This document shows, piece by piece, positions 3,206 through 63,089 of a stretch of 64,000 nucleotides of DNA. The position numbers were made by a program, and so were the translations under genes. The DNA is from Streptococcus pneumoniae. Its GTDB lineage: Bacteria > Bacillota > Bacilli > Lactobacillales > Streptococcaceae. The notes beneath the pieces were generated by a model. The model searched no databases. It saw only the letters and a list, made by a program, of their open reading frames with translations, and was not told the DNA's origin. The first letter of the stretch is position 1, and every line of letters starts with the position of its first letter. The DNA lies in contig NZ_CRPU01000001.1 of the NCBI RefSeq assembly GCF_001096185.1, positions 434,001 through 498,000 on the forward strand, written 5' to 3'.

Positions 3206-4078
3206 ATGGATAAAATTATTAAAACTATATCAGAAAGCGGAGCCTTTCGTGCTTTTGTCCTTGATAGCACAGAAACTGTCCGCACTGCTCAAGAAAAACA
3301 CCAAACCCAAGCTAGCTCAACTGTAGCGCTTGGTCGAACTCTTATCGCTAGCCAGATTCTCGCAGCCAATGAAAAAGGGAATACCAAACTAACAGTTAAG
3401 GTGCTGGGATCTAGCTCTCTAGGAGCCATTATCACCGTTGCTGATACCAAGGGGAACGTCAAAGGCTACGTTCAAAATCCTGGTGTTGACATCAAAAAGA
3501 CTGCAACTGGTGAAGTCCTAGTCGGACCTTTTGTTGGAAATGGTCAATTTCTCGTTATCACAGACTACGGCATTGGAAATCCTTATACTTCCTTGACCCC
3601 ACTCATCTCTGGAGAGATTGGTGAAGACCTTGCCTTTTACCTTACTGAAAGCCAACAGACCCCTTCTGCAGTCGGTCTCAATGTCCTTTTGGACGAGGAA
3701 GACAAGGTCAAGGTTGCTGGTGGTTTCCTAGTTCAAGTCTTGCCGGGAGCCAAGGAAGAAGAGATTGCTCGCTTTGAAAAACGCATCCAAGAAATGCCAG
3801 CTATCTCAACGCTTCTCGAAAGTGAAGACCATATCGAAGCCCTCCTCAAGGCAATCTACGGTGACGAGGCCTACAAGCGTCTTTCTGAAGAAGAAATCCG
3901 TTTCCAATGTGACTGTAGCCATGAGCGCTTTATGAACGCTCTTGCCAGCCTTCCAAGCTCAGACTTGCAGGAAATGAAAGAGGAAGACCACGGGGCAGAA
4001 ATCACTTGTCAATTCTGCCAAACGACTTACAACTTTGATGAAAACGACCTGGAGGAACTCATTCGTGACAAATCTTAA
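3206..4078 (+). CDS. hslO: Hsp33 redox-regulated chaperone
   Basis: A 290-aa cytoplasmic holdase activated by oxidative unfolding. The C-terminal zinc-binding cysteines are visible as CDC (in [10 protein letters not shown]) and CQFC, the CxC/CxxC pattern that senses oxidation. The N-terminal Hsp33 core begins [18 protein letters not shown] chose the ATG at 3206 because it gives the family length and alignment; in-frame codons upstream would add an unrelated extension. There is no Shine-Dalgarno before this ATG, and an extended -10 box (TGCTAAAAT) ends only seven bases upstream, so the mRNA may be leaderless. dus follows with overlap, so the two genes are probably co-transcribed. Confidence 0.93.
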
Positions 4079-22524: not shown

Positions 22525-23064
22525 ATGAAAAAATTACTAAGCACGTCAACTATTTTACTTTCTGCTACCATTCTAGTAGCTTGCTCTAACAATCAATCAA
22601 CTACCAAAGATAGCTCGGAGCAACCAAAAACGGAGCAAAAAAATACTACTTCAACAAACACAAAAGCCAAAGTAGATAACAGTAAATACGATGATTTAAT
22701 TTCTGAAATCAAATCAAAATTAGATCCTGAATCAACTGGCGCAATAAGCGTTAAAATTCAAAATAACGTAATCGATTCAGATTCATCCGAACCGCATGAT
22801 ACAATCATGATTTTGCTAACTGGAACGGCTAAAGATAACGCAAAAGAGACCATGGCCGCAATCAATTCAAATTCTGCTACAACTAATCAGCAAAATGCAA
22901 TTACCGTATTTCGGATGTCTATATCTGAGTTTGCTAAAAAATTACCAGACGACAATACTACTCTTTCCCTTGGGTATGAAAAATCTGCTGATCAATACGA
23001 CTTAATCGCAAAATCTTCAAAACAAAAAGATTTTATCCCTGTTGGAGAAATCATCGTAAATTAA
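22525..23064 (+). CDS. Island-encoded lipoprotein
   Basis: A 179-aa secreted lipoprotein. The signal peptide MKKLLSTSTILLSATILVAC ends in a lipobox (LVAC) with lipidation at Cys20. A Ser/Thr/Lys-rich linker then leads to a folded domain. I use the ATG at 22525 behind AGGAGG; the reading frame extends upstream through the DUF4177 gene but is not coding there. Expressed beside the repressor, it could be a lysogenic conversion or superinfection-exclusion protein. That is inference; no known family was recognised. Confidence 0.75.
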   Translation: MKKLLSTSTILLSATILVACSNNQSTTKDSSEQPKTEQKNTTSTNTKAKVDNSKYDDLISEIKSKLDPESTGAISVKIQNNVIDSDSSEPHDTIMILLTGTAKDNAKETMAAINSNSATTNQQNAITVFRMSISEFAKKLPDDNTTLSLGYEKSADQYDLIAKSSKQKDFIPVGEIIVN

Positions 23065-23193
23065 AAAACTCCCCCATATTCTCCAATAGCGCCCCTATTT
23101 CTAAGGTCTATTGTGCAAAAACAAGGGAAAATGAAAAATAGAAAGCCAATTTTACAGACTAAAGTGTAAAAAACGGCAAATTTGACAAATAGA
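23063..23193. repeat. 131-bp direct repeat, copy 1
   Basis: It starts AAAAAACTCCCCCATATT and ends TTGACAAATAGA. Copy 2 (24172-24302) has the same length, with scattered substitutions and no net indel. The copies bracket the MazF-like gene and the first small RNA. Both contain CTATTGTGCAAAAA and a later ACTAAAGTG[TC]AAAAAACGG, suggestive of protein-binding sites. A degenerate third trace may exist around 24700-24740 (CCCCATATTCGCC). Confidence 0.9.
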
Positions 23194-23252
23194 GATGACT
23201 AATATCTTCTAAACCATCGGCGAAATCGTGGACATATATAGAGAGAATTAAA

Positions 23253-24017
23253 ATGAACAAAGAAAATCCATATTTTGAACAAACCAAACAAAACTACATA
23301 GAAGTTGAAAAACTCTATAAAATTGGTAAAGCAAAGCATACATCTTCTAAATACAGATTTCTTGCACCAGCAGTTAAAAGACAATCTGAACAATTCTTAT
23401 TTGAAGCCAAGACTCAAAAAAGAAAATATTGGAAATTCAGTCGTGGTTCTCTGGTATTCGTAGAGTTCGGTGTAAATATAGGCGGAGAATTATCAAATAA
23501 TCATTGGGCTATTGTCTTAGACAAAGTAGATAGTCCCTATAAAAAAACACTTACAGTAATTCCCCTAACATCTAAAAATCAAATAGATACTGTACTCATA
23601 GACGAAGTCATTGCAGAATATCCTTCTATTTTGCTTGATGAATATATTGAAAAATTACACAAAGAATTATTTGCCTACCTAAAATATTTAGATTCCAATA
23701 ATGCAATTACTGAAGCTGCCTTATCGGATGTCTACCAAGCTTATACAGAACAATTTTCAAACGAAATAATTCAACCTAAGATAATAGACGATGATAACCT
23801 TAAACGGACACAATCAGAAATAAATGACGTTATTGAATTAACTCAATACTACAAAAAATACATTAAGCGTTCTTATGCCAAGTGTAATAACCTTCAAACA
23901 ATCAGCAAAGATAGAATTTTAAAGAAAAATAGATTAGATCCAATCGGAAAAATGAAAGTATCTGATAACACATTGGACAAAATTAACGAAAAGTTAAAAG
24001 AATTATACCTTTTCTAA
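23253..24017 (+). CDS. MazF/PemK-like toxin-domain protein
   Basis: A 254-aa protein. Residues ~62-110 (KFSRGSLVFVEFG, then GGELSNNHWAIVLDK, then TLTVIPLTSK) follow the MazF/PemK core of endoribonuclease toxins: the RG-x-x-x-x-V-x-FG start, the paired strands with WAIVL, and the V-x-PLTSK strand. The flanking N-terminal helix (1-60) and the long C-terminal half (110-254, helical, Lys-rich) are extra; classic MazF is ~110 aa. No antitoxin protein gene adjoins it. Immediately downstream is a predicted structured small RNA. It occupies the accessory slot between repressor and integrase, where satellites often carry anti-phage genes. Toxicity and target are inferred. The ribosome binding site (GAGAG) is weak. 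Confidence 0.7.
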   Translation: MNKENPYFEQTKQNYIEVEKLYKIGKAKHTSSKYRFLAPAVKRQSEQFLFEAKTQKRKYWKFSRGSLVFVEFGVNIGGELSNNHWAIVLDKVDSPYKKTLTVIPLTSKNQIDTVLIDEVIAEYPSILLDEYIEKLHKELFAYLKYLDSNNAITEAALSDVYQAYTEQFSNEIIQPKIIDDDNLKRTQSEINDVIELTQYYKKYIKRSYAKCNNLQTISKDRILKKNRLDPIGKMKVSDNTLDKINEKLKELYLF

Positions 24018-24021
24018 TCTC

Positions 24022-24050
24022 TTGACATTTTTTAATAATTATATTACAAT
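24022..24050 (+). promoter_or_regulatory. Promoter of small RNA 1
   Basis: TTGACA (24022-24027), a 17-bp AT-rich spacer and TACAAT (24045-24050), starting five bases after the MazF-like stop codon. This is one of the best promoter matches in the island and would start RNA near 24057. Confidence 0.75.
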
Positions 24051-24056
24051 ACAGCT

Positions 24057-24147
24057 ATTAGGAGTTTAGCTCCATAAAGTTTACATTTGGATTTTAGATC
24101 CATAACGTGATAGTAGCCGTATTTGATACGGCTACTTTTCTTTTTAT
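24057..24147 (+). ncRNA. Predicted small RNA 1 with two tandem hairpins
   Basis: A predicted ~90-nt transcript. It contains GGAG-TTTAG-CTCC-ATAA (from 24061) and, 28 bases on, GGAT-TTTAG-ATCC-ATAA (from 24089). These are two tandem hairpins with the same loop and a compensatory change in the stem (G-C to T-A). The transcript ends in a ten-base-pair stem GTAGCCGTAT/ATACGGCTAC (24113-24135) and a T-rich tract. No open reading frame of note. It lies directly behind the MazF-like gene, inside the 131-bp repeat cassette. Confidence 0.6.
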
Positions 24148-24171
24148 ATTCTAGTAAACATAACTTAAAAT

Positions 24172-24302
24172 AAAAAACTCCCCCATATTCACCAATAGCA
24201 ACCCTATTTCTACGGTCTATTGTGCAAAAATGGAGGAAATTGAAGAATAGAAAACCAATTTTACAGACTAAAGTGCAAAAAACGGCAAAATTGACAAATA
24301 GA
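24172..24302. repeat. 131-bp direct repeat, copy 2
   Basis: Second copy of the repeat at 23063-23193, same orientation and length, about 1.1 kb away. Homologous recombination between them would delete the MazF-like gene with small RNA 1. Confidence 0.9.
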
Positions 24303-24381
24303 AAGGAGAATCACTAGACTACGAAACAACACGGAAGGGACAGTTTTAGGACGAAAAAAGGCGAACTTATTCGCTAATTTG

Positions 24382-24480
24382 TTTACATATATCTCCAAAT
24401 GGATTATAATTTATTTAATCTTAATGAATGGTTGCAGTAGTGACCTACCAAAAGGGGCTTTTAACGAAGCTCCTTTTGTG
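24382..24480 (+). ncRNA. Predicted small RNA 2
   Basis: Promoter TTTACA (24382-24387), 17 bp, TATAAT (24405-24410), giving a start near 24417. The ~65-nt product has a small hairpin GTAG-TGAC-CTAC (24437-24448) and an eleven-pair terminator stem AAAAGGGGCTT/AAGCTCCTTTT (24450-24477). No ORF. Layout matches the neighbours: one short hairpin, then a terminator. Confidence 0.5.
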
Positions 24481-24532
24481 CATTATTTTGAGGTTTAATC
24501 AATGAAACCATTTCTAATTGCTTACCTGCTGA

Positions 24533-24653
24533 TTAACATCTATTAGACTTTAATCTATAATTAAGTTACTTAGAGGTTTACCCTCATGTTTTTTAAACTT
24601 TGAGCCTCAGCGCTCCAGGGAAGTAGCTTAGTTGTTACTTCCTTTTTATTTTC
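24533..24653 (+). ncRNA. Predicted small RNA 3
   Basis: Promoter TTAACA (24533-24538), 17 bp, TATAAT (24556-24561), giving a start near 24568. The ~85-nt product has GAGG-TTTAC-CCTC-AT (24573-24587), resembling the GGAN-TTTAG-NTCC-AT hairpins of RNA 1. It ends in a GGAAGTA/TACTTCC stem (24619-24642) followed by a T-rich tract. No ORF. The imperfect third copy of the 29-bp repeat (24505-24530) lies just upstream of the -35 box. Confidence 0.5.
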
Positions 24654-24851
24654 TAAATAAAACTCTTGCAATATAGGGACTTTCTTAAAATCTCATATAA
24701 GCCCCATATTCGCCTTGTTTTCTATTCTGGTACAATTTACCGTCTGACTGCTTAAAATCGAAAATAGGGGCATTCTCGTAGCTCCTCGCATGGTATAAAC
24801 TCAAAACCTTTTCTAATTGCTTGCCTGCTGATGGAAAAAGGAGTTAAAACC
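24654..24851. other. Integrase leader region
   Basis: About 200 bp before the integrase start. It holds a possible -10 (TACAAT at 24731), a CCCCATATTCGCC stretch related to the 131-bp repeats, and copy 2 of the 29-bp repeat (24801-24829), immediately followed by the integrase ribosome binding site. I could not pair the -10 with a good -35. Confidence 0.5.
24801..24829. repeat. 29-bp exact repeat, copy 2 (integrase leader)
   Basis: Identical to 20012-20040. It ends six bases before the AAAAAGGAG ribosome binding site of the integrase, so any RNA pairing here could affect integrase translation. Confidence 0.9.
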
Positions 24852-26018
24852 ATGAAAATTACACAACATACGAAAAAAGACGGATCAGCAGTCTACCGCT
24901 CCAGTATCTATCTTGGCATTGATTCTGTGACTGGTAAGAAGGTCAAGACTACCATATCAGCACGAACAAAGAAAGAACTCAAAAACAAGGTCACCCAGGC
25001 TAAGGTAGCATTTGAGAAAAACGGCTCTACACGGAAACAACGCTCACATATAACAACCTATAGCGAACTTGTGGACTTATTTTGGCAAACCTACCAGCAT
25101 ACCATAAAGACTAATACGCAGATAAAGATAAGAGGTTGCTTAAATAATTACCTCTTACCCTCATTTGGTACTTACAAACTAGATAAACTTACACCTGTCA
25201 TTATCCAAACTCAGGTAAATAAGTGGGCTGATGAGTACAATCAGGACGGAACGGGGTATAAAGAATACAATCATCTTCATGCCTTAAATAAACGTATTCT
25301 ACAGTACGGAGTTTCTATCCAGGCATTAGATAATAACCCTGCTCGTGATGTTGTCATTCCCAGAAAGATAACCAGAGATAAACAAGAAATTAAATACTTT
25401 CAAGATCAGGAACTTAAAAACTTCCTCTCCTATCTCGATAATCTGGAGAATACCTTTATCAATTTCTATGATACTGTGCTTTATAAAACGCTCCTAGCTA
25501 CTGGACTTCGCATCCGTGAATGTCTTGCCCTGGAATGGTCTGATATTGACCTGCAGAACGGAACAATCGATATTAACAAAACACTCAACATTTTAAACCA
25601 GGTAAACACTCCTAAGACAAAATCAAGTTATAGAGTTCTAGATATCGATCATAAAACAGTGCTCATGCTTCGTCTCTACCGAGCAAGACAAGCAGAAAAC
25701 GGTAGAAATATTGGCCTAACCTATGAGAAAGTATTCTCTGATAGCTTTGACAACTATGTCAATACTCGAAAGGTTGATTATCGCCTACATAAGCACTTAA
25801 AAAACGCTAACTGTACTGACTTAGGCTTTCATGCTTTCCGACACACTCACGCTAGTATCTTGCTTAATGCTGGTCTACCTTACAAGGAGATACAGACACG
25901 GCTTGGCCATGCAAAAATATCTGTAACTATGGACACTTACAGCCATTTATCAAAAGAAAACCAAAAAAGAGCAGTCTCATTCTTTGAAACTGCCCTCGAA
26001 AAAATAAAAAGTTCTTAA
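24852..26018 (+). CDS. int: Tyrosine recombinase (island integrase)
   Basis: A 388-aa site-specific integrase. An N-terminal AP2-like arm-binding domain (KITQHTKKDGSAVYRSS...) is followed by a SAM-like core-binding domain (residues ~55-150). The catalytic domain has the first Arg in ATGLRIRECLALEW (about residue 210), HAFRH (327-331), LGHA and the nucleophile Tyr in MDTYSHL (363). I start at ATG 24852 behind AAAAGGAG rather than the in-frame ATG at 24831, which lacks spacing. The stop codon lies inside the right att repeat, as usual for this family. Leader pairing with the early transcript is discussed as a finding. Confidence 0.95.
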   Translation: MKITQHTKKDGSAVYRSSIYLGIDSVTGKKVKTTISARTKKELKNKVTQAKVAFEKNGSTRKQRSHITTYSELVDLFWQTYQHTIKTNTQIKIRGCLNNYLLPSFGTYKLDKLTPVIIQTQVNKWADEYNQDGTGYKEYNHLHALNKRILQYGVSIQALDNNPARDVVIPRKITRDKQEIKYFQDQELKNFLSYLDNLENTFINFYDTVLYKTLLATGLRIRECLALEWSDIDLQNGTIDINKTLNILNQVNTPKTKSSYRVLDIDHKTVLMLRLYRARQAENGRNIGLTYEKVFSDSFDNYVNTRKVDYRLHKHLKNANCTDLGFHAFRHTHASILLNAGLPYKEIQTRLGHAKISVTMDTYSHLSKENQKRAVSFFETALEKIKSS

Positions 26019-28990: not shown

Positions 28991-29119
<129 letters not shown>

Positions 29120-29180
29120 ATATATTATATGGATATATGATAGCGCAAAATAAGAAAAATGTCAAGGAAACTGCTTACAG

Positions 29181-49190: not shown

Positions 49191-50117
49191 ATGTCTATTT
49201 ATAACAACATTACTGAACTAATCGGTCAAACTCCGATTGTTAAACTCAACAACATTGTGCCAGAAGGTGCTGCAGATGTCTATGTAAAACTTGAAGCATT
49301 TAACCCTGGTTCTTCTGTAAAAGACCGTATTGCTCTTAGCATGATCGAAAAAGCTGAACAAGACGGTATTCTAAAACCTGGTTCTACTATTGTTGAAGCA
49401 ACAAGTGGAAACACTGGTATTGGACTTTCATGGGTAGGTGCTGCTAAAGGGTATAAAGTCGTCATCGTTATGCCTGAAACTATGAGTGTAGAACGACGTA
49501 AAATTATCCAAGCCTATGGTGCTGAACTCGTCCTTACTCCTGGTAGCGAGGGAATGAAAGGTGCTATTGCTAAGGCTCAAGAAATCGCTGCTGAACGTGA
49601 TGGTTTCCTTCCTCTTCAATTTGACAATCCAGCTAATCCAGAAGTACACGAAAGAACAACAGGAGCTGAAATACTAGCTGCTTTCGGTAAAGATGGACTA
49701 GATGCCTTTGTTGCTGGAGTGGGTACCGGTGGAACGATTTCTGGTGTTTCTCATGCACTCAAATCAGCAAATTCAAACATTCAAGTTTATGCAGTGGAAG
49801 CTGATGAATCCGCCATTCTATCTGGTGAAAAACCTGGTCCTCACAAAATTCAAGGTATCTCAGCTGGATTTATTCCTGATACACTTGATACTAAAGCCTA
49901 TGATGGTATCGTTCGTGTAACATCAGATGATGCTCTTGCACTCGGACGTGAAATTGGTGGAAAAGAAGGTTTCCTTGTAGGGATTTCTTCAGCTGCAGCT
50001 ATCTACGGAGCCATCGAGATTGCCAAAAAATTAGGTACAGGTAAAAAAGTCCTTGCTCTAGCACCAGATAACGGTGAACGTTATCTCTCTACAGCACTCT
50101 ATGAATTTGAAGTTTAG
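49191..50117 (+). CDS. cysK: Cysteine synthase
   Basis: A 308-aa PLP enzyme (O-acetylserine sulfhydrylase). The PLP lysine is in [12 protein letters not shown], the substrate loop is [12 protein letters not shown] and the phosphate-binding [15 protein letters not shown] is intact. GISSAAAI ends the active site. It stands alone with its own promoter and terminator. The alternative name cysM is used in some genomes. Confidence 0.94.
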
Positions 50118-50134
50118 TCTCCTAAATACAATTG

Positions 50135-50160
50135 GCCCTTATTATAGGGCTTTTTATTTT
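50135..50160 (+). terminator. cysK terminator
   Basis: GCCCT/AGGGC stem with AT-rich loop followed by TTTTTATTTT. Confidence 0.75.
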
Positions 50161-61941: not shown

Positions 61942-63033
61942 ATGTGGCTACAACACCTATCTCTCAAAACTTTTCGTAACTATAAAGAGACGAAAATAGA
62001 CTTTAATCCTAAATTAAATGTCTTTTTAGGACGCAATGCACAAGGAAAAACAAATATGTTAGAGGCTATCTATTTTTTAGCCTTAACACGTAGCCATCGA
62101 ACTCGAACAGATAAAAATCTCATTCATTTTGATGAGGAACAACTTCATCTTTCAGGTCTTGTTCAGAAAAAAACGGGATCCATTCCTCTCGAAATCGAAC
62201 TCACACAAAAAGGACGTGTGACAAAAGTTAATCATTTAAAACAGGCACGACTTTCAGATTATGTAGGAAACATGAATGTTGTCTTATTTGCTCCTGAAGA
62301 TTTACAACTAATTAAAGGAGCACCTTCAGTTCGACGAAAATTCATTGATATGGAACTTGGACAAATCAAGCCAATCTATTTATCTGACTTAACCAATTAT
62401 AACCATATCCTAAAGCAAAGAAACACTTACCTAAAATCAGCTCAAAAAATAGATGAAACCTTCCTTTCAGTCTTAGATGATCAGCTAGTTGATTATGGAT
62501 GTCGTGTAATGAATCACCGCTTAGATTTCATAAAAAAACTAGAATATTTTGGTCGTAAGAAACATTTTGAACTTTCTAATCAGATTGAAGAGCTGTCAAT
62601 ATACTATCAATCTTCTGTAAAGATAACTGACAAAGAAGACTTATCAGAATCTTTCAAAATTGCTTTAGAGAAAAGTAGGTCCAGAGATTTATTTAAGAAG
62701 AATACTGGTGTTGGTCCTCATCGAGATGATATTTCTTTTTATATAAATGGGATGGATGCTAGTTTTGGAAGTCAAGGTCAACATCGTAGTCTCGTCCTCT
62801 CTATAAAATTAGCAGAAATCGAGTTAATGGAAAGTATTACTACAGAATCTCCAATATTACTACTTGACGATGTTATGAGTGAACTTGACAACACTAGACA
62901 ACTAAAATTATTAGAAACGATTTCTCATTCAATCCAAACCTTTATCACAACAACAAGCTTAGATCATCTTCAAAATCTGCCAGAAAATCTAAGTATCTTT
63001 ACTATTCAGGATGGTAAAGTTAGTGTAAATTAA
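61942..63033 (+). CDS. recF: DNA repair protein RecF
   Basis: A 363-aa SMC-like ATPase of recombination repair. Walker [25 protein letters not shown], signature [16 protein letters not shown] and Walker [13 protein letters not shown] are complete. It starts two bases after yaaA, so they are one operon. Confidence 0.96.
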
Positions 63034-63049
63034 AATTGACAACATCGTA

Positions 63050-63080
63050 AAAGAACTCCTGTTTTCACGGGAGTTCTTTT
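63050..63080. terminator. Bidirectional terminator between recF and guaB
   Basis: AAGAACTCC/GGGAGTTCTT stem with T-tracts on either side, between convergent genes. Confidence 0.85.
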
Positions 63081-63089
63081 CATTGTTTT

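What the first reader, a model, noticed from the sequence alone, without database searches (positions are those of the whole stretch)
23253..24147. MazF-like toxin gene with a downstream structured RNA that has compensatory tandem hairpins
The accessory slot of the island holds a 254-aa protein with a MazF/PemK-like core but no antitoxin protein gene. Starting right after its stop codon is a consensus-like promoter. It drives a ~90-nt RNA with two tandem 28-nt units, GGAG-TTTAG-CTCC-ATAA and GGAT-TTTAG-ATCC-ATAA. The stem change is compensatory (G-C to T-A), good evidence of selection for the fold. Type III toxin-antitoxin systems pair a MazF-fold toxin with a repeat RNA antitoxin. Here the gene order is reversed and the RNA has its own promoter. 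If the RNA inhibits the protein, this would be a new layout for such a system; if not, a structured RNA of unknown role remains.
Basis: partly seen in the sequence, partly recalled or inferred. Interest (0 to 1): 0.75.

Follow-up and report, generated by a model that had tools for sequence, protein, structure and literature searches.

The report
MazF-like toxin with downstream partner RNA
A phage-satellite gene for a MazF-like protein, related to a staphylococcal anti-phage protein thought to act alone, is followed by its own small two-hairpin RNA, and this gene-RNA pair recurs in many phages of Gram-positive bacteria, which suggests an overlooked RNA antidote.

Summary
The 254-aa ORF is MazF/PemK-like with an insertion between the MazF halves. 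Behind its stop lie a promoter (11/12), two 4-bp hairpins 28 nt apart and a terminator; the hairpins covary in 13 RNAs. Toxin-profile searches, made without the RNA, find this unit behind 34 of 34 (promoter) and 29 of 34 (promoter plus terminator) toxin clusters; hold-out viral clusters 20 and 19 of 25; controls 2 of 28 other MazF clusters (3 if any member counts) and 1 of 218 other ORFs. RNA similarity tracks toxin similarity. Among loci of the window's integrase, the RNA is in 4 of 4 with the toxin and 0 of 31 without. RNAs also occur without the toxin; the window holds two such, one of AbiF type by position. The family includes the MazF-like gene of SaPIpT1028, an island whose MazF-like anti-phage system Sma is called single-protein in print; I found no mention of an RNA. 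Best reading: an RNA antitoxin that binds the toxin, type III-like, but downstream on its own promoter. Antisense control of the toxin mRNA is not supported. Transcription, toxicity and inhibition are untested, and I could not read the original Sma paper.

The parts
23253..24017 (+). 254-aa MazF/PemK-like toxin with an N-terminal extension and an insertion between the two MazF halves
24022..24050 (+). sigma-70 promoter of RNA-A (TTGACA-17-TACAAT)
24057..24147 (+). RNA-A, the partner RNA (start inferred from promoter spacing)
24061..24073 (+). hairpin 1: GGAG-TTTAG-CTCC
24089..24101 (+). hairpin 2: GGAT-TTTAG-ATCC
24112..24136 (+). intrinsic terminator of RNA-A
24382..24478 (+). RNA-2: promoter 24382-24410 (11/12), hairpin, terminator 24449-24478; homologue of the stretch directly upstream of an Abi_2 gene in satellite Javan329; here no Abi_2 gene follows
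24533..24654 (+). RNA-B without its toxin: promoter 24533-24561 (11/12), hairpins, terminator 24617-24644; homologue of the RNA behind the PemK gene of satellite Javan378
23062..23193 (+). left copy of a 132-bp direct repeat (90% identical) flanking toxin + RNA-A
24171..24302 (+). right copy of the 132-bp direct repeat
24831..26018 (+). tyrosine integrase of the satellite, next to the cargo slot

Best explanation
The pair is a toxin-antitoxin or abortive-infection module of a phage satellite. The protein is a MazF-type endoribonuclease (inferred from homology). The RNA of about 90 nt, made from its own promoter just behind the toxin gene, acts in trans and binds the toxin through its two stem-loop units, so that the toxin stays inactive (inferred). 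Loss of RNA supply, for example when an incoming phage shuts down or degrades host RNA, would free the toxin and stop the infection (inferred). On this reading the staphylococcal Sma system would not be single-protein but RNA-controlled. Shown: gene-RNA layout, hairpin conservation with covariation, linkage of RNA to toxin and not to integrase, co-inheritance of RNA and toxin types, no special match of the RNA to its own toxin mRNA, no conserved protein antitoxin. Not shown: transcription, toxicity, binding, neutralisation.
For: (1) Promoter 34/34 and promoter+terminator 29/34 toxin clusters, against 2/28 other MazF clusters and 1/218 other ORFs (counting every row, 52 of 57 scorable long-toxin rows pass, and 3/28 of the other MazF clusters have a passing member); hold-out 20/25 and 19/25 with unchanged thresholds. 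(2) At least two hairpins in the RNA body: 32/34 (10.0 expected from shuffles) and 23/24 (8.3 expected); fold z without terminator, Stouffer -10.6, 33/34 negative. (3) Compensatory changes, 0/500 shuffles. (4) RNA similarity follows toxin similarity: Mantel rho 0.40, 0/2000 permutations; the nearest RNA belongs to one of the 3 nearest toxins in 41/54 (3.1 expected). (5) Integrase loci: element in 4/4 with the toxin, 0/31 without. (6) Asymmetry expected of an antidote: long toxins seldom lack the unit, RNAs do occur alone. (7) No small ORF family shared by more than 5 of 34 loci up- or downstream. (8) A two-motif RNA neutralises the phage AbiF toxin by direct binding (PMC12373285, abstract and passages). 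(9) Sma of SaPIpT1028 (AY954948) is reported to be expressed in the lysogen and to protect against non-helper phages (PMC12409344, passages); the only match of the window toxin in that record is ORF005, which belongs to the family and has the unit behind it.
Against: No transcript, toxicity or binding data. Sma is called a single-protein system, so the protein may work without an RNA; the original paper is not held and I do not know whether its test constructs held the RNA. In 6 of 39 RNA-A loci the nearest upstream gene is not MazF (Bro-N/DinD-like 5, DUF1828 1), and in 4 it is a short MazF, which in another copy has no RNA (L200). A type-B relative lies behind a 148-aa gene without Pfam match in phage EJ-1, and RNA-B behind a Fic gene in Javan337. 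The layout is not that of classical type III. The position of the MazF catalytic Arg (recalled) is His in 29 of 31 aligned members. Five of 34 discovery clusters miss the terminator threshold and 5 of 25 hold-out clusters the promoter threshold.
Confidence: 0.56

Rival explanations
1. The RNA is a functional partner of the protein but not its inhibitor: a substrate, sensor or activator, for example an RNA whose cleavage or loss switches the enzyme or reports phage infection.
For: The linkage and co-inheritance data show partnership, not its sign. Sma is described as acting as a single protein, which would fit an RNA that is not needed to tame it.
Against: RNAs persist without the toxin while the long toxin seldom occurs without the RNA, the asymmetry expected of an antidote.
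Confidence: 0.2
2. Type I-like control: the RNA represses the toxin mRNA by base pairing.
For: Small RNA with own promoter next to a toxin gene, as in type I systems (recalled).
Against: Complementarity to the own toxin start region is no better than to those of other clusters: mean rank of the cognate 15.9 among 34, about what chance gives; coding regions 16.6. RNA and toxin gene are on the same strand and do not overlap.
Confidence: 0.07
3. The RNA is an independent element of the lysogeny/integration slot (insulator, integrase regulator, attachment-region RNA) and the toxin is merely one of several cargoes.
For: RNA-A, RNA-B or relatives also stand behind Bro-N/DinD-like, DUF1828, Fic and unknown genes near the integrase.
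Against: 0 of 31 loci of the same integrase family without the toxin have the element as defined there, 4 of 4 with it do; in PT1028 no integrase is annotated in the 2.5 kb behind the unit; two Lachnospiraceae contigs have the unit as well; RNA type follows toxin type.
Confidence: 0.09
4. Chance or ordinary gene end: a terminator with incidental hairpins and promoter-like AT-rich sequence.
For: Promoter-like sites are common in AT-rich DNA (12 found, 8.0 expected in this stretch).
Against: 1 of 218 control ORFs from the same loci meets the criteria; covariation and hold-out test.
Confidence: 0.02

Closest known systems
[quoted passage not shown] aureus pathogenicity island SaPIpT1028
   Same: Carried by a phage satellite; ORF005 of the same record (AY954948) is the only match of the window toxin there (31.8% identity over 87%), belongs to the family (A1) and has promoter, hairpins and terminator behind it. 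Reported to be expressed in the lysogen and to protect against non-helper phages (PMC12409344 passages; also named in PMC12829572 and PMC12948488, passages)
   Different: That ORF005 is Sma is inferred, not read. Described as one protein; the passages I saw name no RNA (no occurrence of 'small RNA' or 'antitoxin' in PMC12409344). The window protein's own activity is unknown. The primary paper (Cell 2022, doi 10.1016/j.cell.2022.07.014) is not held.
Type III toxin-antitoxin systems (ToxIN, CptIN, TenpIN, AbiQ)
   Same: Toxins reported to share the MazF/Kid/CcdB-type fold; RNA made of short repeated units; no protein antitoxin (PMC5086642 abstract and passages)
   Different: There the RNA array lies upstream of the toxin, shares one promoter and is separated by a terminator; units of 34-50 nt, pseudoknots in all crystallised cases. 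Here the RNA is downstream with its own promoter, has two simple hairpins about 28 nt apart, and the toxin matches Pfam PemK/MazF; no ToxN-type PDB chain at E<=0.01.
AbiF-RCd22 of a Clostridioides difficile prophage
   Same: Phage-borne toxin with a SigA-promoter RNA of about 100-130 nt holding two stem-loop motifs and a terminator; the RNA binds and neutralises the protein (PMC12373285 passages)
   Different: The toxin is an Abi_2/AbiD/F protein, not MazF; the RNA lies upstream and reads through into the gene.
Type II MazEF / PemIK
   Same: Toxin domain PF02452; both MazF halves align to PDB chains such as 7bxy and 4hke
   Different: No conserved small antitoxin gene next to it; insertion between the halves; N-terminal extension.
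Rfam RF02913 'pemK' RNA
   Same: The name; association with pemK genes is recalled only
   Different: A different RNA: the 21 copies examined (of 30 fetched) have another sequence and none has a PemK of this family in the fetched 3 kb; RNA-A has no Rfam match.

Membership tests
[quoted passage not shown]
   AY954948 ORF005 is in the family alignment and is the one match in that record; that ORF005 is Sma is inferred
[quoted passage not shown]
   reported for Sma, unknown for the window protein
[quoted passage not shown]
   an RNA unit stands behind PT1028 ORF005 and nearly all relatives, but need for it is untested
Type III toxin-antitoxin | Toxin with MazF/ToxN-type fold | tested here: inconclusive
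   MazF sequence homology by Pfam and PDB profile search; no ToxN/AbiQ/CptN chain at E<=0.01; structure prediction off
Type III toxin-antitoxin | RNA made of tandem repeated units | tested here: met
   Two or more hairpins in 32/34 and 23/24 RNAs; direct repeats with compensatory stems seen by eye in the window RNA, L054, L324 and L349
Type III toxin-antitoxin | RNA upstream of toxin, one promoter, terminator between | tested here: not met
   RNA is downstream with its own promoter
Type III toxin-antitoxin | RNA units fold as pseudoknots | tested here: inconclusive
   Only hairpins predicted; the methods used cannot predict pseudoknots
Type III toxin-antitoxin | RNA binds and neutralises the protein; toxin processes the RNA | not testable with these tools
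   needs the bench
Type II MazEF | MazF toxin domain | tested here: met
   PF02452 E 7.9e-8
Type II MazEF | Adjacent protein antitoxin gene | tested here: not met
   No conserved ORF of 30-140 aa up- or downstream; largest group 5 of 34 loci
Type I toxin-antitoxin | RNA complementary to toxin mRNA | tested here: not met
   Cognate pairing no better than non-cognate
AbiF-type RNA-toxin system | Abi_2 toxin | tested here: not met
   No Abi_2 match for the window toxin
Rfam RF02913 pemK RNA | Match to the covariance model | tested here: not met
   No match in 23950-24830 at E<=10

The most novel reading that the evidence does not exclude
A widespread class of RNA-neutralised MazF toxins, of which staphylococcal Sma would be one, lives in the integrase-side slot of Firmicutes phages and satellites, with the antidote RNA gene behind the toxin. 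The RNAs outlive their toxins and pile up as an array of orphan antidotes (here RNA-A, AbiF-type RNA-2 and RNA-B in about 630 bp), which protects the island from toxins of rival phages and satellites.
Probability: 0.32. Interest if true: 0.85.

Novelty: new variant of a known kind. Interest (0 to 1): 0.75.

Why it matters
If true, RNA-protein toxin-antitoxin systems are not tied to the ToxN family or to an RNA-first operon: MazF proteins, usually filed as type II toxins or as 'mazE-like' phage genes, would have RNA antidotes with independent promoters. A defence system reported as a single protein (Sma) would turn out to have a second, RNA component, which makes its control and trigger directly testable. 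The many cognate RNA-toxin pairs allow specificity studies, and the orphan RNAs make it testable whether satellites keep antidotes against rivals.

Tried and rejected
Rfam pemK RNA (RF02913) as the identity: rejected, a namesake. Antisense (type I) control: no cognate signal. RNA as an integrase or slot element: disfavoured by the 35 integrase loci. A small peptide in the RNA: no ORF of 20 aa. A conserved protein antitoxin: none found. A kissing-loop pairing between the two loops: seen by eye in some types (type C, S. suis type A), not in the window RNA; not tested. An ACA/AGG difference in the linker between toxin-linked and other mitis-group RNA-A copies: a lead only, may be lineage. A type-A model hit at window 62998-63088 (E 0.015) is the end and terminator of a recF-like gene (the name from its sequence is recalled): chance. 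Structure prediction could not be run, so no fold search was made. PADLOC and NCBIfam gave no family for the window toxin; PADLOC gave only weak coiled-coil-like matches for PT1028 ORF005 and none fitting the others tried.

Full report
Observation. ORF 23253-24017 codes for 254 aa, matches PF02452 PemK_toxin at E 7.9e-8 and phrog_1412 ('antitoxin mazE-like') over residues 1-253 at E 6.9e-74. NCBIfam and PADLOC have no match. Four bases after the stop codon begins TTGACA-17-TACAAT, then two hairpins 28 nt apart (GGAG-TTTAG-CTCC, GGAT-TTTAG-ATCC), then an 11-pair terminator. Near-identical copies sit in satellites Javan295 and Javan359 and in pneumococcal phages, so the island is a Streptococcus phage satellite.

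The RNA fold is under selection. Thirteen distinct RNA-A relatives (mitis group and S. suis-type phages and prophages) align with few gaps. In the two hairpins, 4 of 8 pairs change on both sides in at least three sequences each, and 98-100% of cells pair. For the whole structure, terminator included, the covariation score is 0.436 against 0.222 in shuffles, 0 of 500 as high, and sliding the partners destroys it. GGAG/CTCC becomes GAGG/CCTC, and GGAT/ATCC becomes GGGA/TCCC or GGGG/CCCC.

The layout belongs to the toxin family. I built toxin profiles (A1, A2) and searched genomes of the family (335), order (395) and phylum (398), without using the RNA. Rows at E<=1e-11, fragments apart, number 58, of which 57 have enough downstream sequence; together with L187 pieces left out, this is the set. 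They form 34 scorable clusters at 85% identity. 34 of 34 have a promoter of at least 9/12 with its -35 box at -25..+20 of the toxin stop, and 29 of 34 also a strong terminator; at 45% clustering 20/20 and 16/20. Of the five misses, L181 and L006 have terminators by eye; L243, L262 and L263 are open. Controls: 2 of 28 clusters of other MazF genes by their representatives and 1 of 218 other ORFs of the same loci. The first control hides one case: the short phage MazF is represented by L200, without the unit, while five other loci of that cluster (L041, L042, L052, L198, L199; L256 repeats L198) have it, so 3 of 28 clusters have a passing member; one of the three, L247, scores just outside the family limit. 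Thresholds were set after seeing the first set, so I tested them unchanged on viral contigs fetched later. 85 ORF rows: 51 repeat earlier clusters; 27 new clusters, 2 too short. Of 25, 20 have the promoter, 22 the terminator, 19 both. One miss, L312, is a short MazF; the other four below 9 have 8 or 8.5, and L365 and L368 miss the terminator threshold.

RNA anatomy. Between promoter and terminator, at least two hairpins of 4 bp or more occur in 32 of 34 RNAs (10.0 expected from dinucleotide shuffles) and in 23 of 24 hold-out RNAs (8.3 expected); the first starts within 12 nt of the inferred start in 31 of 34 (11.5) and 22 of 24 (8.6). Folding without the terminator: mean z -1.82, 33 of 34 negative, Stouffer -10.6. 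These clusters are related, so combined values overstate independence. Many loops are 5 nt, often with a pyrimidine first and a purine fourth (UUUAG, CUUGA, CUAGA, UUUAC, CAAGC; read by eye). A covariance model built only from RNA-A finds, at E below 0.05, stretches in or overlapping the RNAs of other types on the toxin's strand: L238 (E 2e-4), L322, L239, L045, L236, L319, L046, L048, L350 and RNA-B of the window. It also gives reverse-strand and chance hits at similar scores, such as a gene end at window 62998, and most other types are not found.

RNA goes with the toxin. RNA similarity tracks toxin similarity over 54 pairs (Mantel rho 0.40, 0 of 2000 permutations), and the nearest RNA belongs to one of the three nearest toxins in 41 of 54 (3.1 expected) (L261-L263, L368 and L312 left out). 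To see whether the RNA belongs to the slot instead, I fetched loci of the window's integrase (37 loci, 35 distinct and usable, the window included). With the element defined as promoter of at least 10/12, two hairpins and terminator, it occurs in 4 of 4 loci with the toxin and 0 of 31 without. One-hairpin RNAs such as RNA-2 do not count there. Cargo genes checked by Pfam in such slots are Abi_2 (L375, L372), Fic (L379, L371, L372) and DUF1828/1829 (L373).

RNA without the toxin. In 39 distinct RNA-A loci, the long toxin is directly upstream in 24; another long toxin with its own RNA comes first in 4; a short MazF stands upstream in 4; the nearest gene is not MazF in 6 (DUF1828 1, Bro-N/DinD-like 5; in one of these, L055, another long toxin lies further upstream); 1 is a contig edge (loci mainly from the 116 stretches). 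The window carries RNA-B at 24533-24654, 92% identical to the RNA behind the Javan378 toxin, with no such toxin. It also carries RNA-2 at 24382-24478, 92.5% identical over 161 nt to a stretch of satellite Javan329 that ends in front of an Abi_2 gene. The promoters at 24022, 24382 and 24533 are the three best in 23050-24850. RNA-2 and its Javan329 relative are not matched by the Rfam abiF family, so 'AbiF type' rests on position and architecture.

What is known of the protein. [quoted passage not shown] citing Fillol-Salom et al. 2022, not held). The only match of the window toxin in that record is ORF005, which has the unit behind its stop codon. So the window gene is a distant relative (about 30% identical) of what is most likely sma, and the protein family has reported anti-phage activity. 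The passages I read mention no RNA.

Mechanism. MazF homology suggests an endoribonuclease. The PDB profile search aligns both MazF halves, with the family's His84 opposite the Arg and its Thr106 opposite the Thr of B. subtilis EndoA (that these are catalytic is recalled). No conserved protein antitoxin was found. The RNA does not match its own toxin mRNA better than those of others. With co-inheritance and the asymmetry (long toxin seldom without RNA, RNA sometimes without toxin), direct neutralisation by the RNA is the most economical reading, and AbiF-RCd22 is a worked precedent: two stem-loop motifs, own promoter, direct binding, activity in trans (PMC12373285, abstract and passages). The name 'single-protein' for Sma speaks against a strict need for the RNA. 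A phage that escapes ToxIN by RNA mimicry (PMC3475682, seen only as a listing with the start of its abstract; details recalled) is a precedent for orphan antidotes.

Novelty. Type III systems are described as RNA-first operons with pseudoknot repeats (PMC5086642, abstract and passages). Searches for a MazF/PemK toxin with a downstream or partner RNA gave no paper that reports one, judged from listings and the passages named above (open-licence papers only). The namesake Rfam family RF02913 is a different RNA. I therefore call the RNA-protein pair a new variant of a known kind. Function remains unproved.

Noticed in passing
window 24382-24478: Small RNA gene homologous to the stretch directly upstream of an Abi_2 gene in satellite Javan329; here only an ATG AAA CCA TTT like the Abi_2 start remains (by eye).
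   Followed up: partly
window 24533-24654: RNA-B, the partner RNA type of the Javan378 toxin, without that toxin.
   Followed up: yes
window 23062-23193 and 24171-24302: 132-bp direct repeats, 90% identical, flank toxin + RNA-A and may be how the cassette moved.
   Followed up: partly
L375, L379, L371, L372, L373, upstream of the integrase: The satellite slot alternates between Abi_2, Fic, DUF1828/1829 and MazF-like genes, like a defence hotspot; in front of the Abi_2 gene of L375 there is also a promoter-hairpin-terminator stretch (by eye).
   Followed up: partly
L044, L048, L050, L051 near 3275-3640, minus strand: Rfam Spy779816 sRNA (RF02589) matches near the integrase, two of them above the gathering score.
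   Followed up: no
G000:C7:80422-80522: The genome carries an RF02913 'pemK' RNA in what looks by eye like another mobile element; 144 of 328 genomes of the family have this RNA, and the 21 copies checked have no PemK of this family nearby.
   Followed up: partly
window 29029-29131 (-): TPP riboswitch upstream of ABC transporter genes; ordinary.
   Followed up: no
window 50111-50155: SpF51 sRNA; ordinary.
   Followed up: no
L041, L042, L052, L092, L105, L198, L199, L200: A short 144-aa phage MazF is followed by type-A RNA in some loci, type-C RNA in others and none in L200; whether it uses them is open.
   Followed up: no
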